This document shows positions 46,997 to 64,000 of a stretch of 64,000 nt of DNA, in pieces. A model generated the notes under the pieces. The model worked only from the letters and a program-made list of their open reading frames with translations, did no database searches and had not been told where the DNA came from. A program made the translations under genes and the position numbers. This DNA is from Polytrichum commune (lineage: Eukaryota; Streptophyta; Polytrichopsida; Polytrichales; Polytrichaceae): assembly GCA_950295325.1 (NCBI GenBank), contig OX485806.1:4774001-4838000 (forward strand), in the 5' to 3' direction. The first letter of the stretch is position 1. Every line of letters starts with the position of its first letter.

Positions 46997-47777
46997 TGTC
47001 ACGTGAGGTGACATCGGGGGCTAAGTCACGTCAATTTAGGAGTAAATGGACTCCACTAGGAGTCCATGTGTGTTGGGATGAGTAACGGACTCCATTGGGA
47101 GTCCTAGTTAGTTGTTCATCCACTCCATGGATGAACTCCACATAAGATTGGGGTTGTATGGAGAGGAAGGCCTCTTGACTTGCCATTGTTGTCAAGTCAA
47201 GTCTTGTGAGTGTGTTTTGAGAGAGAGAGCTTGTTGTTGCTTTCTCATGGCTATGGTGAAGTAGATTATGAGTAAAGCCTTTGCATTCTTTCTCCACCAC
47301 TTGCACTCTTGGATTCTCCCTTCGTGGAGTGAGAGATAGCTTGACTCTTGTGTGTGAATTTTAGAGTTTCTTAAGCTTTGTAAGGAGACATTTTAGTTTC
47401 TTAAGCTTGGAGAGAGAAACCCTCATACTTGACAACAATTGTTCAAATTTTTCATTCTTGGTTGTATTTCTGAGTCAGAATGGCCCAGTGTTGAGAGCAA
47501 ATGAGTGATACAAGTGTTTGAAAGCTTAGTTTGTCATTTCTTGCAACCCTCAAGAAGATTTTGAGAGAAATCTTCCCATTTTTCTTTTGTTGTCTCTTTG
47601 TGTTTTCTTCAAGTGTTGATGGTTGAATCTTGAGATTCCATTTGGTCTCAAGATTCTCAAGTCACATCATTCTTGCTTGCAATTTGTAAAAGCAAAGTTT
47701 AATTTTTTAAGTTTACAAACAAACACAAACCAAACTTAAAATTCGATTTTTTAATTTTTTAATTTTTTAATTTTTTT

Positions 47778-48000
47778 TTTGGAGCTCCGGAGCTCCACGG
47801 ACACTCTTGGAGCTCCTGGAGCTCCTGGAGCTCCCATTCTGAACCGAAGGCGGCAAAATCCCGGGCCGGGGCCGGAACAATCCCGGGCCGGGGGCGGCGC
47901 CAGCCGGGCCCCGCGGCAGGTGTCAGCGGGCCGGGCCGGGGGCGGGCGGGCGGCAACCTGGCCCAGGTGGCGGGCGGCGCCAGCCTGGCCCCCCTTCCCC
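47778..48000 (+). repeat. GC-rich block with GGAGCTCCT repeats
   Basis: Several GGAGCTCCT/GGAGCTC units (47780-47835), then runs of CCGGGCCGGGG and GGGCGGGCGGC. It stands out sharply from AT-rich sequence on both sides. Confidence 0.75.
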
Positions 48001-48028
48001 CTTTTGCAGGTAATTAATTTCCCCTTTA

Positions 48029-48178
48029 GTTAATTAATTCCATAATTAGATTAAGTTAATTAAGTTAATTAGATTAAGTTAATTAAGTTAATTAAGTTAA
48101 TTAATTTAGGATAATTAAGTTAATTAGATTAAGTTAATTAGATTAAGTTAATTAAGTTAATTAAGTTAATTAATTTTT
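48029..48178 (+). repeat. TTAATTAAG tandem array
   Basis: Around ten 9-bp TTAATTAAG units and a 14-bp variant with TTAGATTAAG. Each unit contains the palindrome TTAATTAA. Confidence 0.85.
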
Positions 48179-48748
48179 TGTTTTATTTAATTTTAATTTT
48201 AATTTTTAAATAAACCGGATTTTTTTAATTTTTTAATTTTTAATTTTTAATTTTTTTACTTTCACTTTCAAATTTGGCATTTCATTGTCACAAACTTTGA
48301 GGCACAAATTTGGGGGCATACTAGCTCCGATTGAAGTGAAATTTGAGCCTATTTTGTGTGAAATTTGCCAAGGAATCCAATGGTGTAATTGGATTTTTGA
48401 TTGGAAGTCAAAATCATTGCTGAAATTGCTAATTTCAACGCTGATTTTTGTTTTTGGGAGCAAATTAACTCCGATTGGAGTGAAATTTGAGCCTAATTTG
48501 TGTGAAATCTTCCTAGGAGTCCATTGGTGCACTTAGTTTGTTGATTGGAGTTCATAATCACCTTGGAAATGAGCCTTTTCAACGCTGATTTTTCATTTTA
48601 ATTACCAATCTCAAACCTTTGCACAATTTTGGAATTCTGGGGGCATAAACACTTGGCATTTGGCAAGGGATTGCCATTTAGATAGCCCGCAACAGGTGCA
48701 GGTTGCCATTACCTTGTAGATAGTTGCAGGTACTCAAGTGATTATTTT

Positions 48749-51700
48749 ATGGTGCAAACTAGGAGCCGATATTATCGATCCCCATCACCAGATTACTTGG
48801 AGGACGTGCATACCACAAATCTTGAGCCAGAGGTAGATACCAACGAGGCTTTTGAGCCTATTTCGGCGTTGGACACTACCAGTAGGCTTCGGATTTGGAG
48901 TGTCGGCACGTTCGACGAAATGGAGGACGATCGCCACAATTCAGTGCGTGATCGGTTCTCAGGTCGAGCTGGGGGAATTTCCTTGCCCGATTGGAAACTC
49001 CGGTTTCGTACCTGGATTAAGGAGAAACGCCAAAGGTCTTCCAATTTCAATGATTGGTATGCCTTTGAACTTCTGCCTCAACATTTGGAGTATGAGGCAC
49101 TCCAAACTTACGAACGATGGACGGAGGGTCATCAGCGACAACTTCGGGAGGTGGAGCAGTATTGGGAGGCCCGGGTTGAACTTATTTCAGCCCTTAAAGA
49201 TGGGGCGATTGCCACCTTAGCTCCACCCACCTTAAAGGAGGAGGATCCACCGGAGGAGTCTGAGGACCAAGAACTGGCATTTGGGCCACTGGTGGCTGGC
49301 AGTAGCACGGCTACCCTTTCACGGATGGCACGTGCTACACAGGCAGCATTGACGGCTGTTGGTCCACCACCTCCATTTAATCCCCTTACTGAATTTGTCG
49401 CACATTTGGAAGTGGAGTATGGTGGGTTTCGGCGAGACCAGATGCAGCGCATCCAGGATTTCCGCCGAGAGAAGGATGATACTCCACGGACCATGTATAC
49501 GCGACTCGCGCGATTTGCTGTGGAGTCGGGAGGTGTTTTTGCTGAGAGTCAGCTTGTTAAAATATTTTTGTCTAAGATTGACAAGCGGCTACTTGAGTTG
49601 GCATCACCTCGGATTATCCTCGACTACGAGGGCCGAGCTACGCTTGCACAAGCGTTTGCCGTGGTTGAGAAATGTGATCGGGCTCTTTGCCAACATGATG
49701 CCACGGATATGGTATCTTGGATGACAGAGAGTCCGAAACCAAGAAGAATTGTCACAGCTACTAGTAGTTTAGCTGAGACTCAACTCGTCAAGGAGCAAAA
49801 GATTTTGCATTGTTGGGGTTGTGGAGAAGTTGGTCATTCGAAGAATGATCCCAATTGTCCTAAGAAGAAGAAAACTCAGCCTTTGGGAAAATTAAAACAA
49901 AAGATGGAACCAGTAAGGGCAGGGGACAATTCTAAGAAGAGACAATTGAAATGTAGCCATTGTGGTGGCACTAATCACGATGTGGATCATTGTTTCCTAC
50001 TTCATCCTGAGATGCGGCCTGCCAGTTATGTCACTGGAAAGTCTCCAAGGGAGCAGAGTCTTGAGACTAAGGTGGCAGAGCTTGAGCAAAAACTCAAATC
50101 TTCTGCATCTTTTGCTCAAATTTCTGAGCCGCATGTGGGTGGTGGCACCTCGGGTTCGGACATGTATATGTTTGGAGCAGCTGGAGAGGTGGTGGCGGCG
50201 GCTTCTACTCGCTCACAAACATTGGCAGATGCGGTGGCTTCCACGAGTGGTGGTAGTAACGAGGTGCTACATCCTCGCCATGCCGGACCAGCTGATCAAA
50301 TTGGTCAAGCACGTTTACCTCTTTCATTTGGATTGGTAGACACCACTGTTGTTGGGGCTAAAAACCCTGTACCTTTGAGAGATGGGGATTCCATCTCGAA
50401 GGATGTTACGCAGGCATTGGCATATAAAATTCTCCATATGCCAATTTTCTCGGGTTCGGAATTTATGGCTTCGGATTTCAAGCCTGCTACAGTTTTTCAT
50501 TTAGCTGGGAGAATGTTAGAAGATAAGGCGGATTTGCCATCCCTTCAAGTATCCCAAGCTGTGGTTGACGTACCTGTGGCTGAGGAGGTGGAGGACTTAG
50601 CCAATTTGCGAGCGAGTCTTGCGGATGCGGCGATCATTGCTTTTGGTAAGCAAACTGATATTCCTCCAGCATCAATTTCAGCAGTGGATACGTTGTTTGC
50701 GAATTATTCGTCCGGAGCGGCATATCTTGCAGACATTTCTGCAAGGCCTGCTCGCGAACGGCATAATTTGCAACCAGGAGTTGTACGGCTGATAAACGAC
50801 AAATCTTTGTTTGTCGTTTCACGTACGGATATGCCCACTATCCGTGCTACACCACTGAGAGTTATGATGGATTCCGGTGCTCAACCGGTTATAATTGGCA
50901 AAGGACTTGCTGATAGTCTTGGATTGACGCCAGCAAGCTTGGATCCTTGTCCATTTACTATTGTGACTTCAGTAGGGGGCACTGAACGTGCAACAGGTTA
51001 CACCAAGGCACCTCTACGTTTGATTTTTCATGTGGGGGCAGGGCCTACTTACACTCATTTGTCAATGAAGTGTGTTGTTACTAATGCTACCAACTATGAT
51101 ATACTTGTTGGTCAGCAAGCTCTTTACCCACTTGGCTTTGGTTTGGATAATTGGACGGAAGAGGCATGGATTAGACCGGGATGGTCCACTGGAGATGGCA
51201 GGAAGGTATTTATTCCCGTCACATTTGCAGCCACTGCTATGACTATGGTTGCGGAGGCAATGTTTGGTTGCAGCGGTTCAGTTGCAGATTTGCCTTGTGC
51301 TCCAGTTTTATTGGAGGAAACAATGGACTACACTTGTAATGCGGCACAACAACAATTTTTACCATCTTTTCAAATTCCTGCTCGACATTTCAAGGATCCA
51401 CCTCCACCATGGCGAACTCCTAAGGAGTTATCCAACCATGGTCGACACATTGTAGCGGATTTGGAGCTTGGAGAGGCACCTCCAACTTTATCCTCATTTT
51501 CTTTTGCTCAACCCATTCGTTGGCAACCATCACCTGAAGGTATTGTCCTTGTGGAGATCTTTGGAGGCATTGGCACAGGTTTGGCGGCAGTGTTGGAAAC
51601 TGGAATTACAGTTTGGCGATATATTCATGTGGACAATGGGTATGCAGCCAACAGAGCCGTCCGACACCACATCCAACAATTGTTGTTGAGATACCCCGCA

Positions 51701-52846
51701 CAATTGTCAGCCTCTGCCATTCATGGATGTTGTGGTCAACTTCCTCAAGATGTCACTATGATTAGTGATGAGGATTTGAGAAGGTTGGGCCACGTAGATT
51801 TGATTCTTGCAGGATGGCCTTGTCAAGGCCATTCGCGGGCAAGAACTGGCCAGGGATTGGATGATCCTAGGTCTAGTTTGTTTGCGGATTTGACGCGATT
51901 GACGCAATGGTGGTTTACCCACCAATCAACTCCGCCAGGGTACATTTTCGAAAATGTACCATTATTGGGTGATACCCGGCACAAAGTGGTGAAGGATGGT
52001 GAGTACATTCACCAAATTCTGGGTACTCCAACATTTTTGGATGCTGCATCTTTGGGATCCTTTGCTCATCGGCCTCGTTGGTTTTGGACCAACTTGGTAA
52101 CACCTCGGGTGCTTTCAGCGGCGATTGCCCGCATTCCCCGCCTTATGGATCGCAAAGTGGATGACATTTTAGATGATCATCGTGTTTCCTTGGTAGTTAC
52201 CAAGGATGACACCTTGCCATTTGCATTAATTAATAAGGTGGGCATTCCAAGAGGTGCACTACCTACTTTTGTGACATATCCACAGTCTTTTGCATTTCGA
52301 TCTCGTGGACCTGACATTGTTTGGGATTCAAAAACCCAAACTTATGAGGAGCCTACGGCAGATGAGCGGGAACGCGCCATGGGTTTTCTTACAGGTACCA
52401 CGGCTGCTCACGGGCTTCAGGAAGGTCAGAGACGTTTCCTATTGGGGCAAGCTATGGATCTTAATAGCATTGTGTGGATAATTGGAATTTGTCTTGCTGC
52501 TCAACAACGTATGGATGACCAATTGCTTACTCTGAGGGCAGAGAACAATGGTCAGGGGGCAATGGAGCCGCAATCCAAGGATCACATTGAGGTCAATGAC
52601 ACCGAGGGATTATTTCCTTTGAAACTTCATGTTGCGGAAGAGCTTCGAGCCCAACGTGTTTTTTCGGCTTTGGCCCAAGAATTTGGGAAGTTGGAGGCCC
52701 ATAAAATGTTTCCACTTCTATTTCTTGGTGATACTTCATATGTGGGTAGCTATTTAGCTACACAAACTGATTGTAGTGGAGAGAATACGCATTTGGATTC
52801 AAGTGCAGATGATGGGGGCAAAGGAGTTGCCCTCTCCACGGACTAG
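48749..52846 (+). CDS. Element M gag-protease-DNA methyltransferase polyprotein
   Basis: 1365 codons from ATG 48749 to TAG 52844-52846. Gag-like helical region at about residues 200-330; zinc knuckles CWGCGEVGHSKNDPNC (about 355, one residue longer than usual) and CSHCGGTNHDVDHC (about 402); aspartic protease with MMDSGAQPVI (about 706). Residues about 930-1250 are a cytosine-C5 DNA methyltransferase: motif I EIFGGIGTG (F938), motif IV GWPCQGHSR with the catalytic Cys1025, motif VI FENV (E1068), motif VIII-like AHRPRWFWTN (1106 on), motif IX-like RERAMGF, and motif X-like LLGQAMDLNSIVWI (about 1233). Motif I context and AHRPRWFW resemble DNMT3/DRM enzymes. Every catalytic motif is present. 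In the cell it would act on DNA, perhaps the element's own cDNA. Methyltransferase-bearing retrotransposons have been reported in charophyte algae and dinoflagellates (from memory). Confidence 0.9.
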   Translation: MVQTRSRYYRSPSPDYLEDVHTTNLEPEVDTNEAFEPISALDTTSRLRIWSVGTFDEMEDDRHNSVRDRFSGRAGGISLPDWKLRFRTWIKEKRQRSSNFNDWYAFELLPQHLEYEALQTYERWTEGHQRQLREVEQYWEARVELISALKDGAIATLAPPTLKEEDPPEESEDQELAFGPLVAGSSTATLSRMARATQAALTAVGPPPPFNPLTEFVAHLEVEYGGFRRDQMQRIQDFRREKDDTPRTMYTRLARFAVESGGVFAESQLVKIFLSKIDKRLLELASPRIILDYEGRATLAQAFAVVEKCDRALCQHDATDMVSWMTESPKPRRIVTATSSLAETQLVKEQKILHCWGCGEVGHSKNDPNCPKKKKTQPLGKLKQKMEPVRAGDNSKKRQLKCSHCGGTNHDVDHCFLLHPEMRPASYVTGKSPREQSLETKVAELEQKLKSSASFAQISEPHVGGGTSGSDMYMFGAAGEVVAAASTRSQTLADAVASTSGGSNEVLHPRHAGPADQIGQARLPLSFGLVDTTVVGAKNPVPLRDGDSISKDVTQALAYKILHMPIFSGSEFMASDFKPATVFHLAGRMLEDKADLPSLQVSQAVVDVPVAEEVEDLANLRASLADAAIIAFGKQTDIPPASISAVDTLFANYSSGAAYLADISARPARERHNLQPGVVRLINDKSLFVVSRTDMPTIRATPLRVMMDSGAQPVIIGKGLADSLGLTPASLDPCPFTIVTSVGGTERATGYTKAPLRLIFHVGAGPTYTHLSMKCVVTNATNYDILVGQQALYPLGFGLDNWTEEAWIRPGWSTGDGRKVFIPVTFAATAMTMVAEAMFGCSGSVADLPCAPVLLEETMDYTCNAAQQQFLPSFQIPARHFKDPPPPWRTPKELSNHGRHIVADLELGEAPPTLSSFSFAQPIRWQPSPEGIVLVEIFGGIGTGLAAVLETGITVWRYIHVDNGYAANRAVRHHIQQLLLRYPAQLSASAIHGCCGQLPQDVTMISDEDLRRLGHVDLILAGWPCQGHSRARTGQGLDDPRSSLFADLTRLTQWWFTHQSTPPGYIFENVPLLGDTRHKVVKDGEYIHQILGTPTFLDAASLGSFAHRPRWFWTNLVTPRVLSAAIARIPRLMDRKVDDILDDHRVSLVVTKDDTLPFALINKVGIPRGALPTFVTYPQSFAFRSRGPDIVWDSKTQTYEEPTADERERAMGFLTGTTAAHGLQEGQRRFLLGQAMDLNSIVWIIGICLAAQQRMDDQLLTLRAENNGQGAMEPQSKDHIEVNDTEGLFPLKLHVAEELRAQRVFSALAQEFGKLEAHKMFPLLFLGDTSYVGSYLATQTDCSGENTHLDSSADDGGKGVALSTD

Positions 52847-52852
52847 CAATCA
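52844..52852 (+). promoter_or_regulatory. Stop codon in readthrough context (UAG CAAUCA)
   Basis: The gag-protease-methyltransferase frame ends TAG CAATCA, which fits the CARYYA rule for leaky UAG (as in tobamovirus replicase). Pol continues in the same frame with no ATG at its start, so readthrough is the simplest way to express it. Confidence 0.65.
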
Positions 52853-55630
52853 CAGGCTGTGCTGGCACCAATTGGCAATCCTTCTATGAAGAAGGAAACC
52901 ACGGAGTTTGACGATTGGCCAATTGAAGTGGGGCCAAAGCTTACTGGTGCCGAAGCACGAAAGGTACGGGCATTTATTCGCTCTTACCGTAATTGTTTTG
53001 CCTTTAGTCTTCATGATCTTGAAGGATATAAAGGTAAATCTGTTCGTATTCAACTCGAGGACGACCACCCTATTTTCAGACGGCCATACAGACTTAGTAC
53101 CTCTGAAAGGTTGGGTGTTCAAACTCGATGTCAAGAGTTATTGGCAGCGGAATTGATTGAACTCTCCAATGGAGAGTATGCTTGTGCCACGGTTATGCCG
53201 TCAAAGAAGGATATCTTTGGCAACTGGACGGAAAAACGGATGTGTGGTGATTATCGTCCAGTCAACCGCAAGACCAAGTCGGATCGATATCCAATGCCGA
53301 TGCCGGAGGAGTTGTTTGATGCACTAGGATTTTCTAGAATCTTCAGCACTTTGGATTTGAGGTCTGGTTATCACCAATTACCTTTGTTGTTGGGTGATCG
53401 GGTGAAGACCGCATTTTGGGGAATTGATAAAGATGGCAAGGATCAACTTTATCATTGGAAATTTCTGCCATTTGGTCTCAAGAATGCACCAGCTGAATTT
53501 CAGCGGGTGATGGACCAATTATTGGCTGGTTTGCCGTTTGCTAGATGTTACATTGATGATGTTATCATCTTTAGTAATAGTCCACATGATCATGTGAGGC
53601 ATTTGCAAGCGGTATTTGAACGACTTCAACGGTGGGGACTCCGTTTACATCATGGAAAATGTAAGTTTTTTCATGATCAATTGCCCTATTTAGGCCACAT
53701 GATTGTTCCTGGCGGTCTTGGTGTGCAACAGGCGAAGGTGGATGCTTTGCACAAAATTCCCGCACCTAGTGATGTACCACGGCTTCGTGCATTTCTAGGA
53801 TTGGCAAATTATTATAGGAAGTTTGTCAAAAACTTTAGTTTGATTGCCAAACTTCTTACCATTCTCACGGGGAAAGACCAACCATGGATTTGGAGTAGGG
53901 AACAACAACAAGCATTTGATACATTGAAGCAGAGGCTCGGTTCAGCGCCAGTGCTTCGACGCCCGGATGTGTCTAGAGCTTTTCAATTGCACACGGATTG
54001 GAGTGCAGTGGGATTGGAAGCGGTATTGACACAGAAAGATGAAGAGGGAAAGGAATATGTGGTGGCTTATGCATCTAGAAGCAATAATAGTGCTGAATCT
54101 AATTATTCTTCTTATGAAGGCGAGGCCTTGGCGGCCGTTTGGGCCATTGCACATTTTCGACCTTATTTGTATGGGCAAAAGTTTACTTTGGTGACTGATC
54201 ATCAGCCTTTAAAATGGCTTATGGAATCAGATAAGCTCACCGGGAAACTTGCTAGGTGGGCATTGTTACTTCAGGAATATGATTTTGAAGTTGTTCACCG
54301 AGCAGGAATTGCCAACTTGGATGCAGACGGATTGTCTCGCAATCCAAGTCCTTCAGATGAGGATTTAACTGGAGCCAGGTGGCATAGAGATTGTGATCGT
54401 GAGGCAGTGCCGGGTTGGCATGCTGCCACATATCTCACAATGATGTCGGGATTGGCTGCTGAGATCCTTGTAGAAGAACAGGATGAGGAGGTTGATAAAT
54501 CTCTCGTTGTTAGTGATGTGTGGGAAGACCAGGCGGTCTTGTACAAACTTCAACAAGGGATATTTCCTCTTGGACTATCTGCTATGGAGCGAGATAGAGT
54601 TAGTCACCGGATAACAAGGTTTCGTTGGGCAAACAACTTGTTATTTCGTGTGTGGCCGAACGGAACGAGGCGCATCGTTCCAAGGCCAGATCAAAGAGCT
54701 TCTTTGGTACGGCAAGTGCACGAGGAGCTTGGACATTTTGGAGTGCGAAGGACGCACTCTATGTTGCGCAACCAATATTGGTGGACTGGTATGTATCAAC
54801 AGGTTGCCACTTATGTTTCTCGGTGTGAAGTATGTGACCGGGTCAGGTCAAGTTTTAATACTTTGTCACCTCAACTTCAGCCTTTACCTATTATGGGCTT
54901 GGGATATCGTTGGTCTTTGGATTTTGCCGGACCGCTTACTATCACTCCACGTGGTTCCAAATATGTGCTTGTAATGGTGGAGCATTTTAGTAAGTGGATT
55001 GAACTCGTGGCTCTTCCCCAAAATTCCTCAGAATTGGCGGCTATGGCATTTCTTGATCGAGTTTTGGCACGGTTTGGAGCACCTGCAGAGGTGTTGACGG
55101 ATCAAGGGAGAGAATTCCTTGGATCTTTCGAGGCTTTGTGTACCAAGGCTTTGATTGATCATCGGACAACTTCCAAAGATCACCCTGAGGCAGATGGCTT
55201 AGCTGAACGAGTTGTTCAGACAGTTAAGCGCGGTTTGCGGAAGTATGGACTGCTTCATGGCAACCATCGCGATTGGGACTTGATGTTACCATGGATAGCA
55301 ATGGGTTATCGTTTCAGCAGGCAAACATCTTTGGCATCCTATAGTCCTTACCAACTCTTGTATGGACGGGAACCAATTTTACCTAGCTCGGTGCGAGAGA
55401 AATTGGCTCCCGTGGTAAACTTGGATGATCGAGATGTTTGGGCTCAATGTCTTCATGACCGAGCAGCGTTCTTCCAAAAGGCCATGCCTATGGCTATGGA
55501 GAACTTAAATATTGCTCAACATCGTGATACATTACGGTATGCCCGGATCCGCAGTGGAGCTTATCGACCTCAGGTTCGTAGATTTTCCAAGGGGGATTAT
55601 GTTTACTTGCAACGGGAGGCGCCTATGTGA
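52847..55630 (+). CDS. Element M RT-RNase H-integrase (readthrough product)
   Basis: In frame with the upstream ORF across one UAG; counted from the codon after it, about 927 codons. RT: KRMCGDYRPVNRKT, LDLRSGYHQ, FLPFGLKNAPAEFQ, catalytic YIDD at about 235. RNase H: LHTDWSAVGLEAVL, YSSYEGEALAAVWA, TDHQPLKWL, DADGLSR. Integrase: zinc domain HEELGHFGVRRTH and CEVCDRV, then LDFAGPL, LTDQGREF, and ADGLAERVVQ carrying the catalytic Asp, Asp, Glu. The frame ends at TGA 55628-55630, which belongs to the next LTR (TGTGAGG). The C-terminal GPY/F-type domain is lost, cut after KGDYVYLQREAP. The first in-frame ATG is 27 bases or more into the frame. Confidence 0.9.
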   Translation, partial: QSQAVLAPIGNPSMKKETTEFDDWPIEVGPKLTGAEARKVRAFIRSYRNCFAFSLHDLEGYKGKSVRIQLEDDHPIFRRPYRLSTSERLGVQTRCQELLAAELIELSNGEYACATVMPSKKDIFGNWTEKRMCGDYRPVNRKTKSDRYPMPMPEELFDALGFSRIFSTLDLRSGYHQLPLLLGDRVKTAFWGIDKDGKDQLYHWKFLPFGLKNAPAEFQRVMDQLLAGLPFARCYIDDVIIFSNSPHDHVRHLQAVFERLQRWGLRLHHGKCKFFHDQLPYLGHMIVPGGLGVQQAKVDALHKIPAPSDVPRLRAFLGLANYYRKFVKNFSLIAKLLTILTGKDQPWIWSREQQQAFDTLKQRLGSAPVLRRPDVSRAFQLHTDWSAVGLEAVLTQKDEEGKEYVVAYASRSNNSAESNYSSYEGEALAAVWAIAHFRPYLYGQKFTLVTDHQPLKWLMESDKLTGKLARWALLLQEYDFEVVHRAGIANLDADGLSRNPSPSDEDLTGARWHRDCDREAVPGWHAATYLTMMSGLAAEILVEEQDEEVDKSLVVSDVWEDQAVLYKLQQGIFPLGLSAMERDRVSHRITRFRWANNLLFRVWPNGTRRIVPRPDQRASLVRQVHEELGHFGVRRTHSMLRNQYWWTGMYQQVATYVSRCEVCDRVRSSFNTLSPQLQPLPIMGLGYRWSLDFAGPLTITPRGSKYVLVMVEHFSKWIELVALPQNSSELAAMAFLDRVLARFGAPAEVLTDQGREFLGSFEALCTKALIDHRTTSKDHPEADGLAERVVQTVKRGLRKYGLLHGNHRDWDLMLPWIAMGYRFSRQTSLASYSPYQLLYGREPILPSSVREKLAPVVNLDDRDVWAQCLHDRAAFFQKAMPMAMENLNIAQHRDTLRYARIRSGAYRPQVRRFSKGDYVYLQREAPM

Positions 55631-57078
55631 GGCCAAACCCCCCACCCTTAAGCGTCCGTAGTCCGAGTAGTGGGTTTGGGCTCACATTCCTCCGCGGTAT
55701 TGGATTTGGACTTGGATGAGTCCATAGTGCAAGGTTCACCCTTCAAGTGGTTTTGGATTTAACTAGCTCCTTCATAAACCCAGGTCCTTCATAAACCCAG
55801 CTCTTTACTTTCTAACTAAACAAACCCAGCTCCTTCATAAACCCAGCTCCTTCATGAACCCACAACTTTGTAGTTGTAATCCCCAACTACCTCACTAATT
55901 ATTCAAGCCCTTAACTAATCTTCCTACCTAATTTCCCTAATTCTACTAACAACCCCTTTCTAATCACACAATTCTTCTCTAATCCTAAAATCCTAAAATC
56001 CTAGAGAGGAGAGGGGGAGAGAGAATTTCCTAACTTCACTAAGACTAACTAATCCACACAAGTATATTTTTGCACTCATCACAACATCAAGTGCTCAACT
56101 CTTAAACATGGAACTTGCAACCACGTGTATTCAAAACATGAACTTTAAGTACCACAAATTGGAATCATGAATTAACTTTAAAATCCTTCACGTCAACACT
56201 AATTCTACCAAGAGGTCAAGCCCTCTTCAAGGCTAACAAGCCTTGGCTCTCAAACTAAAAACTAAGCACACACATGTGCTCCAATATGGCTTCCCACACC
56301 CACACTTATAACTCGTGGGGTGCCTTGGAGCACAAAGGAAAGAGAGAGTGAGTGAGGGAAGAATGAGGGATTATATAGTAAGCTTGAGGGGGTGAGCACC
56401 CTCAAGGCTCACGATAAGCCCTTGAGATTTCCTCCTACTTAGTAGGCGCCAATCCTATCTTCTAAGCCTTCCTCCCTCAAATGATCAACAAGGATCCTAA
56501 TTCGAACATTTAACTAGCCTTGGCTTTCTACCTACCACACTTTACCAAACTTGGGATGCTTCAACCCAAACTTAGCCTCCTTCGCTTTCCGCCGCCATAA
56601 CTTTCTCCCCTTACTTTCCCAAATCGTCGCTCACCACTTAATTCAAACCACGATGCTTAACTCGTGATTTGATTGGTGCTTTGAGAATTTGCTTATCCTC
56701 CACCTTGCGTTCTTCCTTGGACCTTCCCCATTAAGTGGCCATGATGAGGTGGTCCACTTGTGCGCTCCATGTGATCCTCCATTCATCCCAATTCGAATGC
56801 ACTTGCCTCTTGAGTCACTTTGGTTGTCTCCATCCATTTGTACTAGCCTACTCACTAACTATTCAATCCAAGTTCTCCTTACCTATCCTCATTCACTCAA
56901 ATCCTTCCGAAGGTAAAAACACAATAACAACTCACATCCTAGCCTCTTACAACATGGTACTTCTAAGACTAACATTTCACTCTTTTTATATTTTTGTGAA
57001 GTAACATGCTACTTCAAAGTGCATCAACTAACGTTTCAAGGGTCTAAGACTAAATGTGGGCACCCTTTTGGGCTCACA
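55626..57078 (+). repeat. LTR with TGTGAG...CTCACA termini
   Basis: 1453 bp bounded by TGTGAGGCC and GGGCTCACA, matching inverted termini. It truncates element M. Contains short tandem units of CCTTCATAAACCCAGCTC (about 55768-55860). A plus-strand TTATATAGTAAG lies at about 56373 and a minus-strand TATAAAAAG at about 56980. Orientation is uncertain: a primer-site-like sequence follows it on the plus strand, yet the adjacent gag-pol is on the minus strand. Confidence 0.65.
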
Positions 57079-57081
57079 TAA

Positions 57082-57099
57082 TCGGCGACCATCGGGGGA
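57082..57099 (+). promoter_or_regulatory. Primer-binding-site-like sequence next to the LTR
   Basis: TCGGCGACCATCGGGGGA, a relative of the TGGCGACCAT...GGGGA site of element T. If real, it marks the LTR as the 5' LTR of a plus-strand element, in conflict with the neighbouring minus-strand pol. Confidence 0.35.
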
Positions 57100-57139
57100 T
57101 GAATCCAAACATCTCTTGCTCCAAGGGTAAGTTGCCTAG

Positions 57140-60100
57140 TCAAGCTCGGTACTCCTTACATCTACTTCCCGATGTACGGGTAGGAAAAAGCTCACCATTC
57201 AACGTTTCCAATTGAATTGAATTATTAGGAAAGACCTCATAGACAAGGTAAGGTCCTAACCATACCGCATTGAATTTCGCCGGAAATTCAAGCTTTCGTG
57301 CGTCTTGAATCATGACCATCATTCCCGGTGTTAGGGCCCTTCTCTTATGTCGTTTGTCGAAAGTAATCTTTCTCCTTCTTTGGATTGCCTCAATATGTTG
57401 AGCCGCCATTCTCCTCCCTTCGTCAAGTGCTTCCAAATCGGTTAGTCGATTTCGTAAGGATTGACTTTCGGTAAGTCTCGTACTCACGGCCACCCTAAGT
57501 GACTCGACTTCATATTGGATTGGTAGTGTCGCTTCAAGACCATAGACTAAGGAAAATGGTGTAGCACGCGTAGTTACCTTATAGGTTGTACGGTATGCCC
57601 AAAGTGCCGCCGTTAGTTTTGTATCCCAATCCCGCTTCGAGTCTATAACCGTCTTGCGTAGTATACTCACCAAAATTCCGTTAACCCTTTCCGTTTGTCC
57701 ATTGGTTTGTGGGTGGTAGGGAGTAGTCTTCCGGTGATCAATTTTAAATTTCTCTGTCATCTCTCGAATCAAGTCATTCAAAAAGTGAGTACCCCTATCG
57801 CTTACTAGGATCTTCGGCACCCCGAACCGCGAAATTATGTTTTCGTACATAAATGTTGCCGCGTGTTCCGCCGTGTCGGTCTTCACCGCTTTGGCTTCCG
57901 CCCACTTGGTGAGGTACTCGGTTGCCACCACAATATATTTCATTCCTTTTGAAGATTGGGGATGGACCTCACCCACATAGTCGATGCCCCATTTTTCGAA
58001 AGGAATTAAGGGTAATGATACATGTAAAGGCATCTCCATTCTAAGGTCGTCTCGGGCATACCGTTGGCAAGCGTCGCATTTCCTTACATAGTCATGGGCG
58101 TCCTTAAATAGTGTAGGCCAAAAGTAGCCCGCTCTAAGTATTTTTTGCCCGGTGAGTTGACCCGAGAAGTGACCGCCGCAAGCGCTATCGTGGCAAGCGA
58201 TTAAAATCGCTTCAACCTCCGTTTTTGACACGCATCGTCGTAAAATACCATCGGACCCCCTTCTAAACAACCTATGGCCCACTACAACAAATTGCCTACT
58301 ATTTACCCTCACCTTCCTTCTCTCTTCTTTTGTCCACTCTTTGGGCAACTTGTGGGTTGTTAGAAATTTCACTATGCCCGCATACCACTCCGGTGTAGAA
58401 GTGACCACAAAGAGGCTATCATCTACTAACATATCATTTACCGGATTTTTTCCTATCTCCTCCGACAACCTAGACAAGTGGTCCGCTTGTAAATGCATAC
58501 GACCCGGTTTATATTCCACCGTGTAGTCGAATTCTTCTAATAACAAAACCCACCTAGCTAACCTACCACTTAACTCCGCCTTGTTAATTAGATACTTGAT
58601 AGCCATGTGGTCAACAAAAAATACAACCGGGTTGCACATGAGGTAATGCCTAAACTTTTTAACGGAAAACACCATGGCTAGGCACTCCCTCTCCGTTGTA
58701 GAGTAGTTTCTTTCGGCGGGGGTCAATTGCTTACTCGCATAAGCTATAGGTTGATCCTTCTCTTTTTCTCCCGTTGCTTGACAAAGCGCACTCCCTATTG
58801 CCACATTACTAGCATCACAATAGACGTGAAAAGGTTTACCCCAATTGGGTGGTATCAACACCGGATAGGTGCTCAACCTATCCCGCAATTCCTCAAAGGC
58901 TTTTTGACAAGCATCCGTCCACTCGAATTTGACATCCTTTTTGAGCAAATGGGTAATGGGCACCGCTATCTTTGAAAAATTAGGAATAAGTTCCCGGTAC
59001 CATCCCACATATCCTAACAACTTAGAGATCCCCTTGGAATTGGTTGGAGTTGCCAAGTCGCTTATGGCCGCAATCTTATCCGGATCGGGTTCTCTACCTT
59101 TCTCACTAACAACATAACCCAACAACACTCCCTTATTCACTCCCAAAAATGTCTTATCCGGGTTCAATGCTAACCTCATCTTCCTACACCTAACCAATGC
59201 CTCCCTAACACAATGTAGGTGATCATCCACATTACTTTGTGTGCTAAAATCGTCCACAAAGACGGTCATGGATTTGAACAACAAGTCGGTGAAGATATAC
59301 ATTACTAATCGTTGGAAAGTAGCCGGGGCATTACATAACCCAAATGGCATCACTACCCACACAAAAGTACCCCAAGGTGTAGTAAAAACCGTTTTATGGA
59401 TATCTTGGAGGGCTATGGAAATTTGATTATAACCCGCATACCCATCCATAAAGGTATATCGCGAATGACCTCCAACCTCCTCAAGCAACAAGGTGATAAA
59501 AGGTAAGGGGAAGTGATCCTTTTGTGTGCACGAATTCAATTTCCTATAGTCGACACAAACCCTTAATTTCCCATTTTTTTTCTTTACTAAGACCATAGGA
59601 GAAACCCAATCCGTGATTTCCACCGGCTTGATAAACCCGGCCTTCAATAACCTTTCCAATTCCGCTTTCACCAACAATTGCAATTGAGGATTCATCCTCC
59701 TCTCCTTTTGTCTAATTGGCCTTGCCCCCGGAATTAAAGGAATCCGGTGCTCTACCATTTCCCTAGGAATTCCCTTAAGCTCATCGTAGGACCATGCAAA
59801 AGTATCACTAAACTCATCCACCAAATTGCTATACTCCCTAACCTCTTTCTCCCCCAATTTGGAGCCCATCTTCATTTGTCGGGTTTTTCCATTCTTTAAT
59901 TTCACATCCACGTACCGCCAATCCGCTTCCGACACATGTGCTTGTTCCTCTTTGTTCCGATACCAATCGGAAGGCACATTGGGGTAATCTTTCACATCTT
60001 GACCTACAACTATCCCCGTAGACGTGGTCTTGAAATGTAAAGGCTCCTCCAATTTCGATGACTCAATAATCACATCCTCCTCTTGAGTCCCATCTACATG

Positions 60101-63100
60101 AATTAAACTAACCTCACCCTCTTCCACGTCATCTACCCAAGGTGTTAACCCACCGCTAACCCACTCTTCCTCGGTGAGCACCTCACATGGCTCCAACAAT
60201 GAGCCCTCTCCTAAACTAACACTAGGAAATTCACTCCCTAAGCCTACTTGGTGAAATGTAACCATTACATCAACCTCGGACTCGGGGTACTCCCTTAGCC
60301 ATTGGGCATAATCCCCATTATCCCCATAATTGTAAAAATTAGGACCTAGACTTCCCGAGCCCGAATCTATAACAACCCTTTGACCTTCGGGATGGACGAC
60401 TCCCACCAATGCCTTGCCAATCTCATTCTCGTTTAAGTCATCAATTTCCTTCTCCAATGGCAAATACATCTCCTTCTTCATCCATCCTTCTAATGAACCA
60501 ATGGACACTATGACCCTATTACCCTCCGGACCATAAGTGATGGATGGTTTAGGTCCACCCCAATTGACCATAGCATTCGCCATCCGCAACCAAGGCCTAC
60601 CTAGCAAAATGGGGAAGGTGTCCTTGTTGGAGTGCATTTTAATGACATGGAAGGTGACCAAGTACTCCTCACCTCCCGTAGTCATTCTACAATCCTTGAT
60701 CATCCCCAAAGGCGTAGTCGAACTTTGATTTGCCATATTTATGACCAAAGGTGAAGGCCCCGTGAGTCCAAGTCCCAATTTTTTCATAGTATCCTCCGGT
60801 AGTATATTTAGACTACTCCCTCCGTCGACTAGCACATTAGGAACCACCTTATCTACTATAACAACTTCTATTTCTATAGCTTTCACGTCTCTTCCACCTT
60901 GTGATTGGATCCTAGCGGCTATTTTAGCTTTCACCTTCCTCATCCTCTTGTGTACCGGCATTCCCTCCTTTAATGTTTTCCTTGCCGTGGGTGAAATTTC
61001 CAATAGTTGGCCGAAAGTAATATCCGCCTTGAGTGTACTAAGGTCCGCCCACAAGTCGTACCCGGTAGATCTTTCCACCTTAGAATTACCCACTACGTCG
61101 AATTCGTCTACGGGAACCCCCGGTCCTTCCCATTCACCCACATCGCTATTATCCAAGTCATGTACCGCATTAGTCCTCTCCCTATCTTGTAAAATTATAT
61201 TTTCCCTCTCCACATCCTTAGTAGCTCTTCTAGCTACCCTATCCAACTCGGAGAGATTAATCTCTTCATCCGAAGAGTAATTTCCTTGCTCTCCTATTCC
61301 TACCTCCAACGGGGCATCCCCTCTCCTAGCCCTAGTAGTTACCGCTAGCGCAGGTGCTTCTTCAACCACACCCTGACCCTTCACTAACTCATATGTAATA
61401 GCATTGGTGTGAGCAGGCCATTGACTTTGCTCCTCTCCAATTCTCGTTGGGAGAGGAAGCATGTCATCACATGTGGCCTCCAACACTCCATCCATGAACC
61501 TAACATCTTGGGAGTTAGATGGTCCCGGATCCGTTGGAGGCGCTTGTCTCCCGTTACTACCATTAGGTGGAACTCCTTGTCTATTTTGTATTGGAATGTA
61601 ACCGGTTGTAGTTTGCAAGCCCGCCGGTGGATGAAAAGTTTGCCTAGCATTACTATGGTCATAGTATAAGTTAGGTGGCCTAAGTTCATTGGCCGGTACT
61701 CCTTGTGGCCTAGCACCTCGCATATTATCCCTTGCTTGTTGTTGTGGATTAGCCACCGGGTAAGGGACATTAATTATTTTGTCCGGTTGGCGACACGTAT
61801 CCGAGGGATGACTTCCTCCACAATTGCTACAATTAAACTCTTGACCTTCGGACCAACATTGTCCTTGAGCGTGCCACCTTCCACAAAAGGGATGAAATTC
61901 CTTCTTCTCTAAATTTTGGCCACCTTGCCCTCTAGGTTGTGGTCCTCTATTGCTTCCATTTCCATAGTGAGGTGGCGCTTGACCTCGTTGATTTTGTTGA
62001 GGTGGGTTACCGTTTCCTCTTTGGTCACGGTTTTGTCCACTTCTACAAAATTGACGCGTGTGGCCCGGTTGGCCACATTGGACACACCATAATCCGGAAG
62101 AATGCCTACCCGACTCAACCGGGGGTGGAGGCCCCGGTTGTTGACTCCGGATCATTAATGACATTTGATCCGTGAGGCTTTGCATTTGTTTTATCATAGC
62201 CTCTTGGAATCCTAGTTGGCTAGCACCTAGTCTTCTCTCAACCTCCTCCAAGTGTGGATCCGTTCTAGGGGCCGGTAGTGCCAAAAGAGGTGCCGGTTCC
62301 CTAACCGCTAAAGGTCGGGGACCGGTGTCCACAATGGCATATGGAATTTGGTTCTCATACTTAGCGGGTTCTACCGCTACCACCCTAGGGCGTATGGGGA
62401 TGAATTGTGGGATCAATTCATCCTCCCTTCTCCATAGCCTTTCGTGATCTTTATCCAAGTTTTCAATATCTCTAGCCGCACGCTTGGCATCCGCCAAGGT
62501 CAAGGGATTCCTTTCTAGAACACCCCTAATAGTTCCGGACTTAAAAAACCCTTGAATGAAAAATTGCTTTAGCGTGTCGTCGTTGAGCATGGTACCCACA
62601 AATCTAGTGCACACTAAATCAAACCTCCTAATGTAAGCCGAAATTTCTTCCTCCCTTCCTTGCTTCAATGACGACAATGCCCTTAATGCGGTACTTTGAC
62701 CCACTTCCGGCCTAAATTCGTTAAGAAACTCCCTTTGTAATTGTTCCCATCCCCTAAAATGTCCCTCGGCATGATCCCGATACCATTCATAGGCTTCCCC
62801 CTCTAGAGTGGTAGGAAACCACACTAACCAATAACCCGGGTCGGTTATGAGGAAGCTAGCCAACCGTTCGATATACCGTTCCATGTGCCGAGAGGGGTCC
62901 TCATCCTTGGTCCCATAAAATTTAGGGAGATGAGATGGCATATCCATCGCCGCTAAATTTTGTGGAACCACAATTGGTAGGCCTCTTGGCCTAACCAATG
63001 GGTCTATTGGAGGTATAGGAGGTATGGGCGGAATTGGGGGTATGGGTGGTGGATCCATCCCCCGTTCCTCGGCCATGGTGACCGGTGAACTATTCAACAA

Positions 63101-63379
63101 TCCCCTATCAACTTCTACCGGGAATTCTTCTCTAAGTGTGTAATTTTCCGAAGAAGTTTCACCACTCAATTTGGAGGGAGTGATCTCCTCTTCAAGTTGA
63201 GCTCCAAGTTCTAAGGTGTCTAGAATTGACCTAGTCCTAGGTTCGACGTTCAAACAACTCTCTATTCTAACATTGTCTTGTTCTAATCTATCACTGATTT
63301 TAGAGGACCGCCTCTTTCGAGTAGATTTCTCTAGTCCTACTATCAAACTTGGTTTTTGTGAGCGAGTCCTACCTTGCAT
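57140..63379 (-). CDS. Element C intact Ty3/gypsy gag-pol polyprotein (2079 codons)
   Basis: One uninterrupted frame from ATG 63379 to TAG near 57140. N-terminus basic, then a Pro repeat (PPIPPIPPIPPIPPID, about residue 112). Gag at about 140-310 (HLPKFYGTKDEDPSRHMERY; EAYEWYRDHAEGHFRGW). Zinc knuckles CVQCGQPGHTRQFC (about 432) and CSNCGGSHPSDTC. Protease VLVDGGSSLN (about 847) and LLGRPWL. RT with LRVCVDYRKLN and catalytic FVDDFS (about 1372). RNase H CDASNVAIGSAL, NYSTTERECLAMVFS, QADHLSRL. Integrase zinc domain CHDSACGGHFSGQ and CDACQRY, core IDYVGE, SDRGTHF, TNGQTERV (D, D, E at about 1798, 1858 and 1893). The C-terminal GPYLVYEV is present. RT type and DGG protease suggest the Athila/Tat side of Ty3. 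The absence of any stop suggests a recent insertion. Confidence 0.92.
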   Translation of the reverse strand: MQGRTRSQKPSLIVGLEKSTRKRRSSKISDRLEQDNVRIESCLNVEPRTRSILDTLELGAQLEEEITPSKLSGETSSENYTLREEFPVEVDRGLLNSSPVTMAEERGMDPPPIPPIPPIPPIPPIDPLVRPRGLPIVVPQNLAAMDMPSHLPKFYGTKDEDPSRHMERYIERLASFLITDPGYWLVWFPTTLEGEAYEWYRDHAEGHFRGWEQLQREFLNEFRPEVGQSTALRALSSLKQGREEEISAYIRRFDLVCTRFVGTMLNDDTLKQFFIQGFFKSGTIRGVLERNPLTLADAKRAARDIENLDKDHERLWRREDELIPQFIPIRPRVVAVEPAKYENQIPYAIVDTGPRPLAVREPAPLLALPAPRTDPHLEEVERRLGASQLGFQEAMIKQMQSLTDQMSLMIRSQQPGPPPPVESGRHSSGLWCVQCGQPGHTRQFCRSGQNRDQRGNGNPPQQNQRGQAPPHYGNGSNRGPQPRGQGGQNLEKKEFHPFCGRWHAQGQCWSEGQEFNCSNCGGSHPSDTCRQPDKIINVPYPVANPQQQARDNMRGARPQGVPANELRPPNLYYDHSNARQTFHPPAGLQTTTGYIPIQNRQGVPPNGSNGRQAPPTDPGPSNSQDVRFMDGVLEATCDDMLPLPTRIGEEQSQWPAHTNAITYELVKGQGVVEEAPALAVTTRARRGDAPLEVGIGEQGNYSSDEEINLSELDRVARRATKDVERENIILQDRERTNAVHDLDNSDVGEWEGPGVPVDEFDVVGNSKVERSTGYDLWADLSTLKADITFGQLLEISPTARKTLKEGMPVHKRMRKVKAKIAARIQSQGGRDVKAIEIEVVIVDKVVPNVLVDGGSSLNILPEDTMKKLGLGLTGPSPLVINMANQSSTTPLGMIKDCRMTTGGEEYLVTFHVIKMHSNKDTFPILLGRPWLRMANAMVNWGGPKPSITYGPEGNRVIVSIGSLEGWMKKEMYLPLEKEIDDLNENEIGKALVGVVHPEGQRVVIDSGSGSLGPNFYNYGDNGDYAQWLREYPESEVDVMVTFHQVGLGSEFPSVSLGEGSLLEPCEVLTEEEWVSGGLTPWVDDVEEGEVSLIHVDGTQEEDVIIESSKLEEPLHFKTTSTGIVVGQDVKDYPNVPSDWYRNKEEQAHVSEADWRYVDVKLKNGKTRQMKMGSKLGEKEVREYSNLVDEFSDTFAWSYDELKGIPREMVEHRIPLIPGARPIRQKERRMNPQLQLLVKAELERLLKAGFIKPVEITDWVSPMVLVKKKNGKLRVCVDYRKLNSCTQKDHFPLPFITLLLEEVGGHSRYTFMDGYAGYNQISIALQDIHKTVFTTPWGTFVWVVMPFGLCNAPATFQRLVMYIFTDLLFKSMTVFVDDFSTQSNVDDHLHCVREALVRCRKMRLALNPDKTFLGVNKGVLLGYVVSEKGREPDPDKIAAISDLATPTNSKGISKLLGYVGWYRELIPNFSKIAVPITHLLKKDVKFEWTDACQKAFEELRDRLSTYPVLIPPNWGKPFHVYCDASNVAIGSALCQATGEKEKDQPIAYASKQLTPAERNYSTTERECLAMVFSVKKFRHYLMCNPVVFFVDHMAIKYLINKAELSGRLARWVLLLEEFDYTVEYKPGRMHLQADHLSRLSEEIGKNPVNDMLVDDSLFVVTSTPEWYAGIVKFLTTHKLPKEWTKEERRKVRVNSRQFVVVGHRLFRRGSDGILRRCVSKTEVEAILIACHDSACGGHFSGQLTGQKILRAGYFWPTLFKDAHDYVRKCDACQRYARDDLRMEMPLHVSLPLIPFEKWGIDYVGEVHPQSSKGMKYIVVATEYLTKWAEAKAVKTDTAEHAATFMYENIISRFGVPKILVSDRGTHFLNDLIREMTEKFKIDHRKTTPYHPQTNGQTERVNGILVSILRKTVIDSKRDWDTKLTAALWAYRTTYKVTTRATPFSLVYGLEATLPIQYEVESLRVAVSTRLTESQSLRNRLTDLEALDEGRRMAAQHIEAIQRRRKITFDKRHKRRALTPGMMVMIQDARKLEFPAKFNAVWLGPYLVYEVFPNNSIQLETLNGELFPTRTSGSRCKEYRA

Positions 63380-64000
63380 TCCATAAGAATCGATCGACCC
63401 TCACTTGACCACACATAATCCTAGCAATTCCCCTCTTAATATTTTCACTTGTCTTGGTGTGGTTATAATTTTTTTTAGGAGGTGAGGAAAAGAACCTGCA
63501 AGCCCACTTAGGTGAAAGAATCCCAATAGGGGATAGGCATGTTCATGTTAATTTTTTGGTTAAGTCGGAGCATCACCTCCGCACCTTCCCGCAAATTAAC
63601 ACTCACCACAATACCGATTGTGAGGGGGTGACCTTCCGAGTAGATTATGTTAAAAGTCGAGGCTTCACCCTTCAACTTCTCACACCATCCACAATTCGGG
63701 AATTACCCTCTACAACGGATAACAACAATCACGAGTACAAAAGGCATTCCTTAATTAGTTAATGAGTTCACTTTGAAGAAATAAACATACCTTGAGCAAT
63801 CGCATCCCCCTGTGAGTTAACACTCCCCTCAATCGTGACTCAATGTAACAACACCATAAACTTTGTGAAATATTAATTTAATCTAGAGCATGAAATGACA
63901 ACTCCCAAAACTTTGAGACTCACCCCGAGGTGAGTGTCAAAGTTCAATGTCCTAAGGTGAATTTACCCTCTAATGTTTTAATGAGCTACTCGGTTATAGG
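63380..64000 (-). other. Leader of element C, running out of the window
   Basis: Upstream of gag on the minus strand; no LTR border or primer site was found before the window end. A plus-strand frame at 63556-63762 has no domain. Confidence 0.4.

What the first reader, a model, noticed from the sequence alone, without database searches (positions are those of the whole stretch)
51539..52500. Complete cytosine-C5 DNA methyltransferase inside a Ty3/gypsy gag-protease ORF
Motifs I (F938GGIG), IV (PC1025Q), VI (E1068NV), VIII-like, IX-like and X-like occur in order and in frame between protease and reverse transcriptase of element M. A retroelement encoding its own methyltransferase could methylate its cDNA or daughter copies, altering its silencing or its target choice. 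Related cases are known in charophytes and dinoflagellates (from memory); placement between protease and RT ahead of a leaky stop may be new.
Basis: partly seen in the sequence, partly recalled or inferred. Interest (0 to 1): 0.88.

Follow-up and report, generated by a model that had tools for sequence, protein, structure and literature searches.

The report
Plant retroelement carrying own DNA methyltransferase
A jumping element in a land-plant genome carries a conserved DNA-methylating enzyme between its coat/protease part and its copying enzymes, a land-plant variant of something so far described in an alga and in dinoflagellates.

Summary
Confirmed. Window 51533-52498 encodes a complete C5-cytosine methyltransferase (MTase), in frame between protease and reverse transcriptase of a Ty3/gypsy element. 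Its nearest solved relatives are DNMT3A/3B. It is no one-off chimera: 114 scored copies, two diverged subfamilies with the same order in the same genome, relatives in Marchantia, Calypogeia and Sphagnum. The MTase is under purifying selection (Ka/Ks about 0.13 between subfamilies, Ks near saturation). ORF1 ends after the MTase at UAG-CARYYA, the TMV-type readthrough context, in 20 of 20 copies and in the other subfamilies. So the MTase should be made at Gag level and RT-integrase only by readthrough. Two copies read to the 3' end show A-coding-B-A-B split repeats, TG...CA ends, 4-bp target duplications and a PHD finger. Closest known: KnitGypsy-Dnmt3 of Klebsormidium (PMC5890265), same repeat layout but MTase in the Pol ORF. 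A new variant of a known kind. Activity and role untested; methylation of the element's own cDNA is the likeliest role.

The parts
46997..47432 (+). A1, left terminal repeat of the element (starts TGTCACGTGAGG)
   Evidence: 18 of 20 fetched copies and the window have this left end; matches A2 near the 3' end of two other copies at 97.7-98.2%
47433..48748 (+). 5' leader with a TTAATTAA-rich tandem repeat around 48010-48208
   Evidence: repeat family D1; alignment to other copies often broken here
48749..52846 (+). ORF1: Gag with zinc-knuckle-like motifs - protease - linker - MTase - linker, 1365 aa, stop TAG at 52844-52846
   Evidence: zinc knuckle only 0.68 in Pfam, otherwise by eye; frames of 1386 aa (stop to stop) in many copies
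50702..51199 (+). aspartic protease region (MDSGAQ at 50867)
   Evidence: Pfam PF13650 7.6e-4 and PF13975 1e-3, both below their curated cut-off; conserved across relatives
51533..52498 (+). DNMT3-like C5-cytosine methyltransferase domain, motifs I to X in linear order
   Evidence: PF00145 8e-10; PDB profile best DNMT3A 8.8e-22; motif positions
52844..52852 (+). UAG-CAAUCA, type I (TMV-like) readthrough context, in frame with ORF2
   Evidence: 20 of 20 copies; 12 of 13 loci of two other subfamilies; motif described in PMC3542737 (passage)
52847..55627 (+). ORF2: RT - RNaseH - H2C2 - integrase; cut short by a nested element at about 55625
   Evidence: Pfam; two other copies run on into a PHD finger; open frames of 1047 aa in many RT copies
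55625..64000 (-). nested minus-strand gypsy element without MTase hit, inserted into element M; not part of M
   Evidence: LTRs at about 55624-57078 and L031:288-1739, 99.2% identical; M resumes at L031:1740; Pfam

Best explanation
This is one copy of an old, recently active Ty3/gypsy-type family in a land plant that has kept a DNMT3-like cytosine methyltransferase as a regular module of its Gag-protease ORF. SHOWN by sequence: domain, position, copy number, selection; split-repeat ends in the two copies read to the 3' end. INFERRED: translation stops at the UAG most of the time, giving Gag-PR-MTase, so the MTase is made at the level of Gag and packed into the particle; occasional readthrough of UAG-CARYYA adds RT-RNaseH-integrase-PHD. 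INFERRED: inside the particle or the pre-integration complex the MTase methylates the element's own double-stranded cDNA before or at integration, so that new copies arrive already methylated. This would make them look like resident heterochromatic DNA, either masking them from surveillance of unmethylated DNA or silencing them at once and so limiting harm to the host. The PHD finger on the integrase probably helps pick the chromatin site. My odds: an integral, selected DNMT3-like module 0.93; readthrough expression 0.85; cDNA methylation as the main role 0.45.
For: PF00145 and the DNMT3A/3B ranking. Copies: 114 scored of 588 candidates, 58 of the 114 without a stop in the 358-aa query stretch (counted by hand). 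RT copies: 84 of 105 have a listed MTase upstream on the same strand, 81 of them within 2 kb, and 6 more are found in the Pfam list (matched by hand). Selection: MTase Ka/Ks 0.13 between subfamilies 1 and 2, 0.16-0.34 within subfamily 2; MTase identity keeps pace with protease while linkers decay (P0002: 77% and 78% against 50-52%). PCQ of motif IV kept in 20 of 20 copies (L009-L028). Readthrough context kept across three subfamilies whose flanks differ. Recent activity: A1 against A2 of the same copy 99.5% in 2 of 2. SymbioDIRS-Dnmt3 enzymes methylate CG de novo in yeast (PMC5890265, passages).
Against: No activity, expression or methylome data. KnitGypsy-Dnmt3, the nearest published relative, showed no activity in yeast (called inconclusive there, as DNMT3B was also inactive). 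Within subfamily 1 the pooled Ka/Ks of the MTase is 0.48, weaker constraint than RT at 0.24, with a single pair at 0.98. Of 20 copies, 2 lack the string ENV and 4 lack GQAMDL of motif X, although all 20 were picked from rows without a stop. 56 of 114 copies have a stop inside. CpG observed/expected of the element (0.68) does not differ from the window (0.66), so it leaves no mark of its own. 15 of 105 RT copies have no MTase in either capped list; not resolved.
Confidence: 0.62

Rival explanations
1. The MTase acts as a self-limiting brake: it methylates the element's new copies mainly so that they are silenced at once, keeping the load on the host low.
For: A host-benefit version is raised in PMC5890265 (Discussion read); the genome carries many copies and the domain is under selection.
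Against: Selection for restraint acting on an element is weak in theory; nothing here separates it from masking.
Confidence: 0.2
2. The MTase modifies RNA or serves as a nucleic-acid binding part of Gag, not as a DNA methylase.
For: It is encoded in the Gag ORF; an RNA role is suggested in PMC5890265 for the LINE type.
Against: Profile is nearer to DNMT3 (8.8e-22) than to the tRNA enzyme DNMT2 (best 1.4e-8); motif IV with Cys found in 64 of 70 family rows by a simple pattern, 4 of the other 6 not matched by the pattern at all.
Confidence: 0.12
3. The domain helps choose or prepare the target site, methylating chromatin at the integration site together with the PHD finger.
For: The two copies read to the 3' end carry a PHD finger at the end of the integrase ORF (PF00628 2.4e-11 and 7.6e-12).
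Against: If the stop works as inferred, MTase and PHD are on different translation products in most molecules; insertion-site preference was not measured.
Confidence: 0.15
4. A chance capture of a host or bacterial MTase in one lineage, now decaying.
For: 56 of 114 copies have a stop inside.
Against: Same order in three subfamilies and in liverwort and Sphagnum relatives; Ka/Ks about 0.13 between subfamilies.
Confidence: 0.03

Closest known systems
KnitGypsy-Dnmt3 (Klebsormidium nitens, charophyte; PMC5890265)
   Same: Gypsy element with a Dnmt3-type, unrearranged MTase under purifying selection; repeats laid out as in DIRS elements although the domains are gypsy (section 9 and legend of Fig. 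4 read).
   Different: There the MTase is said to be in the Pol polyprotein ORF; here it ends ORF1 (gag-PR-MTase) before a UAG-CARYYA stop. Land plant, not alga. PHD finger here (that paper's text on it not seen). Direct sequence comparison not possible: no Klebsormidium protein was named among the hits.
SymbioDIRS-Dnmt3 and SymbioLINE-Dnmt (dinoflagellates; PMC5890265)
   Same: Retroelements encoding cytosine MTases; the DIRS type has A-coding-B-A-B repeats (passages).
   Different: Tyrosine recombinase (DIRS) or LINE; here an rve integrase, with 4-bp target duplication in the two copies with both ends.
DNMT3A/DNMT3B
   Same: Best-matching solved structures; motifs I to X in order.
   Different: No PWWP or ADD domain found by Pfam; PCQ in motif IV where DNMT3A reads PCN; about 16 more residues in the aligned stretch from motif I to just past motif IV (102 against 86).
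Plant DRM methyltransferases
   Same: Next best PDB match after DNMT3 in the profile search; a DRM-like host exon exists in this genome (L045; DRM identity recalled, not searched).
   Different: DRM is circularly permuted (recalled; PMC5890265 calls DRM rearranged); the element's domain is not.
TMV-type (type I) readthrough cassette
   Same: UAG followed by CARYYA (PMC3542737, passage).
   Different: Here between MTase and RT of a retroelement; readthrough not measured.

Membership tests
C5-cytosine methyltransferase, DNMT3 branch | Motifs I, IV (PC), VI (ENV), VIII, IX, X in linear order | tested here: met
   motif names recalled
C5-cytosine methyltransferase, DNMT3 branch | Closer to DNMT3 than to DNMT1/CMT, DRM, DNMT2 or bacterial enzymes | tested here: met
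   PDB profile ranking of 56 sequences, none named DNMT1 or CMT; against solved structures only, no tree with reference DNMTs
C5-cytosine methyltransferase, DNMT3 branch | De novo methylation of DNA | not testable with these tools
   needs enzyme assay
Ty3/gypsy retrotransposon | PR-RT-RNaseH-integrase order with rve integrase | tested here: met
   DDE-type motifs located, residue roles recalled
Ty3/gypsy retrotransposon | Pair of ordinary flanking LTRs | tested here: not met
   A1 at left, B1-A2-B2 at right in the 2 copies read to the 3' end; no B hit beside any of the 18 left ends in L010 and L012-L028, nor in the window
Ty3/gypsy retrotransposon | TG...CA ends and short target duplication | tested here: met
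   ACAA (L017/L029) and CATC (L025/L030), 2 of 2 copies with both ends (read by eye)
DIRS elements | Split direct repeats A-coding-B-A-B | tested here: met
   2 of 2 copies read to the 3' end
DIRS elements | Tyrosine recombinase instead of DDE integrase | tested here: not met
   Pfam finds rve and no tyrosine recombinase
KnitGypsy-Dnmt3 | Dnmt3 in a gypsy element with DIRS-like repeats | tested here: met
KnitGypsy-Dnmt3 | MTase within the Pol polyprotein ORF | tested here: not met
   MTase is in ORF1, stop before RT; a relative, P0027, has all in one 2352-aa ORF
KnitGypsy-Dnmt3 | Common descent with the Klebsormidium copies | not testable with these tools
   no Klebsormidium protein among the named hits listed
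Type I readthrough signal | UAG-CARYYA and an in-frame downstream ORF | tested here: met
Type I readthrough signal | Measured readthrough product | not testable with these tools
   needs reporter or ribosome profiling

The most novel reading that the evidence does not exclude
An ancient, land-plant-wide lineage of DDE-integrase gypsy elements with split-repeat ends that packs a DNMT3-like enzyme at Gag stoichiometry, premethylates its own cDNA in the particle, and regenerates both termini from an internal copy of the joined ends (B1-GC-A2, containing the palindrome GACAGCTGTC), possibly by way of a circular DNA that the integrase opens at that junction.
Probability: 0.25. Interest if true: 0.85.

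Novelty: new variant of a known kind. Interest (0 to 1): 0.62.

Why it matters
Cytosine methylation is the host's main silencing mark on transposons. An element lineage that has kept a DNA methylase across moss and liverwort hosts (vertical descent likely, transfer not excluded), and apparently makes it at Gag level, must gain from it. Marchantia, a bench model, holds relatives, so the question 'why would a transposon methylate DNA' becomes directly testable in a genetically tractable plant. The split-repeat ends with a DDE integrase also pose a replication problem that the ordinary LTR scheme does not solve.

Tried and rejected
Structure prediction of the MTase (alignment A2) was asked 11 times and never started, the queue being full; so no fold comparison was made. 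Viral contigs: 6 stretches matched a pattern, none encodes a relative. CpG depletion gave no contrast: element 0.68, neighbouring gypsy 0.77, window 0.66. The pattern TAG-CARYYA alone is not rare (2 in the window, 3.05 expected); only its place at the stop and its upkeep across subfamilies speak for it. One search read the MTase query in a wrong frame; its stop contexts are void and were redone. Searches translated L029 in wrong frames; one search is the right one. A tree with DNMT1, CMT, DRM and bacterial references was not made: reference sequences were not at hand, and the named hits of the three protein searches were family members. The tree has relatives only and warns of long branches (P0027, P0141, P0172, P0071, P0167, P0012). 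Host species: not named by any tool; plant by its DRM-like exon (identity recalled) and by its relatives; seven large contigs (lengths) made me think of Polytrichaceae mosses, recalled and untested; one paper search on that gave nothing decisive. Papers: PMC5890265 abstract, sections 9 and 11 and passages; PMC12344493, PMC6453930, PMC3542737, PMC10952607 passages; PMC9985172, PMC12885004 and PMC9841425 searched for terms without a match; all others seen as listings. Supplementary files were not open to me, so bryophyte elements may stand in a supplement.

Sampling limits: the 20 copies L009-L028 are 20 of 114, taken from the first 37 rows of a list ranked by likeness to the window's MTase, 19 on the plus strand, all from rows without a stop in that stretch; this favours low Ka and intact motifs in the MTase. 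L002-L008 are mostly the same copies as L009-L014 and are not counted again. In one search rows with under 90% cover of a region were dropped (20 or 21 of 21 used). The 13 loci L032-L044 were picked by hand from the 123 rows, mostly for long open frames; several are 99-100% alike, so they are not 13 independent events. The 42 proteins are all 33 plus 9 picked by hand. All genome lists are capped.
Full report
OBSERVATION. ORF1 of element M runs from the ATG at 48749 to the TAG at 52844-52846 and holds Gag, zinc-knuckle-like motifs (by eye; Pfam only 0.68), an aspartic protease and a cytosine-C5 methyltransferase; ORF2, in the same frame, starts right after the stop and holds RT, RNaseH and an rve integrase. 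PF00145 scores 39.1 bits, E 8e-10. The motif blocks lie at 51554-52465 in linear order. The neighbouring minus-strand gypsy element in the same window has gag, protease, RT, RNaseH and integrase but no MTase hit, which serves as a control.

WHICH METHYLTRANSFERASE. With the single sequence the first 29 of 47 solved-structure hits are all DNMT3A, 3B or 3C (best E 1.3e-7), then HaeIII, a DRM-type chain and HhaI at 0.001 or weaker. A profile of 17 relatives gives DNMT3A 8.8e-22, DNMT3B 1e-19, 4onj 1.4e-12 (labelled 'DNA methyltransferase'; that it is a DRM is recalled) and DRM2 9.4e-9, tRNA cytosine-38 enzymes/DNMT2 1.4e-8 and 2.3e-8, HhaI 5.7e-6; none of the 56 matches is named DNMT1 or CMT. The order of motifs is not rearranged, unlike DRM. 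This places it in the DNMT3 branch by similarity; no tree with reference enzymes could be made.

COPIES. The window's own genome (407.8 Mb, 64 contigs) holds 114 scored matches to the MTase out of 588 first-look candidates, down to 85% identity, 58 of 114 with no stop inside (hand count). Of 105 scored RT matches, 84 have a listed MTase upstream on the same strand within 15 kb, 81 of them within 2 kb; 6 further ones appear in the PF00145 list (matched by hand); 15 remain without a listed partner, and since all lists are capped this is not evidence of absence.

SUBFAMILIES AND RELATIVES. The same genome has at least two more MTase-bearing subfamilies: subfamily 2 (12 loci, L032-L038 and L040-L044, MTase 62.5-65% identical in protein) and subfamily 3 (L039, 45%). 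Protein searches give relatives in Marchantia polymorpha (42-50%), Calypogeia fissa and Sphagnum, and many unnamed proteins. In one search, 35 of 35 proteins with both domains (of 42 shown) have protease before MTase, and 9 of 9 with both have MTase before RT. In the 70-row tree the window's subfamily and subfamily 2 fall in one well-supported clade, subfamily 3 in another with the liverwort and Sphagnum rows, so the diversity looks older than the host species. A horizontal route is not excluded.

SELECTION. Between subfamilies 1 and 2 the MTase has Ka 0.26-0.28 against Ks about 2.1 or saturated, Ka/Ks about 0.13; between subfamilies 2 and 3 it is 0.19; within subfamily 2 it is 0.16-0.34; RT gives 0.04-0.07 between subfamilies 1 and 2. 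Ks near saturation makes the first value rough, but pN 0.22-0.23 against pS 0.70-0.76 is plain. Among 21 near copies of subfamily 1 the pooled value is 0.48, against 0.87 and 0.76 for the linkers on either side, 0.37 for protease and 0.24 for RT; copies were chosen by MTase likeness and without stops there, which biases this. PCQ is intact in 20 of 20, FGGIG in 20, ENV in 18, GQAMDL in 16 (L009-L028). Across relatives the MTase keeps pace with the protease while linkers decay (P0002: 77, 78, 52 and 50%; Marchantia P0018: MTase 50%, protease 41%, Gag N-part 24%).

THE STOP. TAG is followed by CAATCA in 18, CAACCA in 1 and CAATTA in 1 of 20 copies. Subfamily 2 has TAG CAATTA in 10 and CAGTTA in 1 of 12 loci; the twelfth, L035, meets a TAA earlier, out of frame with RT; subfamily 3 has TAG CAGCCA. 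Each of these TAG contexts fits CARYYA, changes fall on the R and Y positions, and the bases before and after differ between subfamilies. RT is in frame with the MTase ORF in 12 of 13 loci (not L035). CARYYA after UAG is the efficient plant-virus readthrough motif (PMC3542737, passage). The pattern as such is common. Consequence, inferred: the MTase is part of the abundant Gag product.

ENDS. 18 of 20 fetched copies and the window have the same left end, TGTCACGTGAGG, at the start of a 436-bp repeat A. The fetched stretch of L009 begins inside A, and that of L011 inside ORF1, so these two show no left end. Two copies were read to the right end: both show B1 (105-107 bp), a GC dinucleotide, A2, then B2. 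No B hit lies beside any of the 18 left ends. The outer ends read TG...CA and are flanked by 4-bp duplications, ACAA and CATC, read by eye. A1 and A2 of one copy are 99.5% identical in both, which speaks for recent movement. This is the DIRS-like layout that PMC5890265 reports for KnitGypsy-Dnmt3 in one sentence of a figure legend. The integrase being of the DDE kind, an inner copy of the joined ends would supply the sequences lost at both RNA ends; circle opening at the B-A junction is my inference.

PHD FINGER AND NESTED INSERTION. In the two copies read to the 3' end ORF2 runs on into a PHD finger (PF00628 2.4e-11 in L029, 7.6e-12 in L030); many RT copies have the matching open frame of 1047 aa. 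In the window copy a minus-strand gypsy with 99.2% identical LTRs sits at about 55625, and M resumes at L031:1740, beyond the window. The stop at 55628-55630 therefore belongs to the insert. The window copy is interrupted; I described both parts and did not join them.

COMPARISON. Works like: a retroelement-borne DNMT3, as in PMC5890265. Membership: it meets KnitGypsy-Dnmt3 on enzyme type, superfamily and repeat layout, and differs in having the MTase in ORF1 ahead of a readthrough stop. That paper does not name Marchantia or moss in its main text and mentions 'bryophyte' once, for host sequences. PMC12344493 mentions DNMT3 members in retrotransposons, 'LTR Copia and DIRS', in streptophytes and dinoflagellates, citing it. 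Searches for bryophyte, PHD-bearing or readthrough cases showed none in their listings; supplements and most subscription journals were out of reach.

VERDICT. Real, conserved, not a chimera; a new variant of a known kind. Function open, testable in Marchantia.

Noticed in passing
L029:867-1513 and L030:836-1481; left end window 46997-47432: Gypsy element with rve (DDE) integrase but DIRS-like A-coding-B-A-B split repeats, TG...CA ends and 4-bp target duplications; B1 and A2 are joined by GC inside the palindrome GACAGCTGTC.
   Followed up: partly
window 55625-64000 and L031:288-1739: A minus-strand gypsy element (2061 aa translated without MTase hit) is nested in element M; its two LTRs are 99.2% identical.
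   Followed up: partly
window 46177-46998 (minus): Element M appears to be inserted in an ORF with a YADD motif, which looks like a LINE-type reverse transcriptase; not tested by Pfam.
   Followed up: no
P0027 and P0141: Distant relatives carry WECQ instead of WPCQ in motif IV, Cys kept; P0027 has gag-PR-MTase-RT-RH-INT in one 2352-aa ORF with no stop between.
   Followed up: partly
P0037: A close relative (74%) is filed in NCBI as a DNA cytosine methyltransferase of a Candidatus Obscuribacterales bacterium; probably plant retroelement DNA in a metagenome bin.
   Followed up: no
L045 (own genome C2:4702800-4704800): A DRM-like host exon (motifs I and IV, preceded in another frame of the same stretch by text that looks like the DRM N-half); DRM identity from memory.
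   Followed up: partly
window 48010-48208: TTAATTAA-rich tandem repeat in the element's 5' leader, where alignments between copies tend to break.
   Followed up: no
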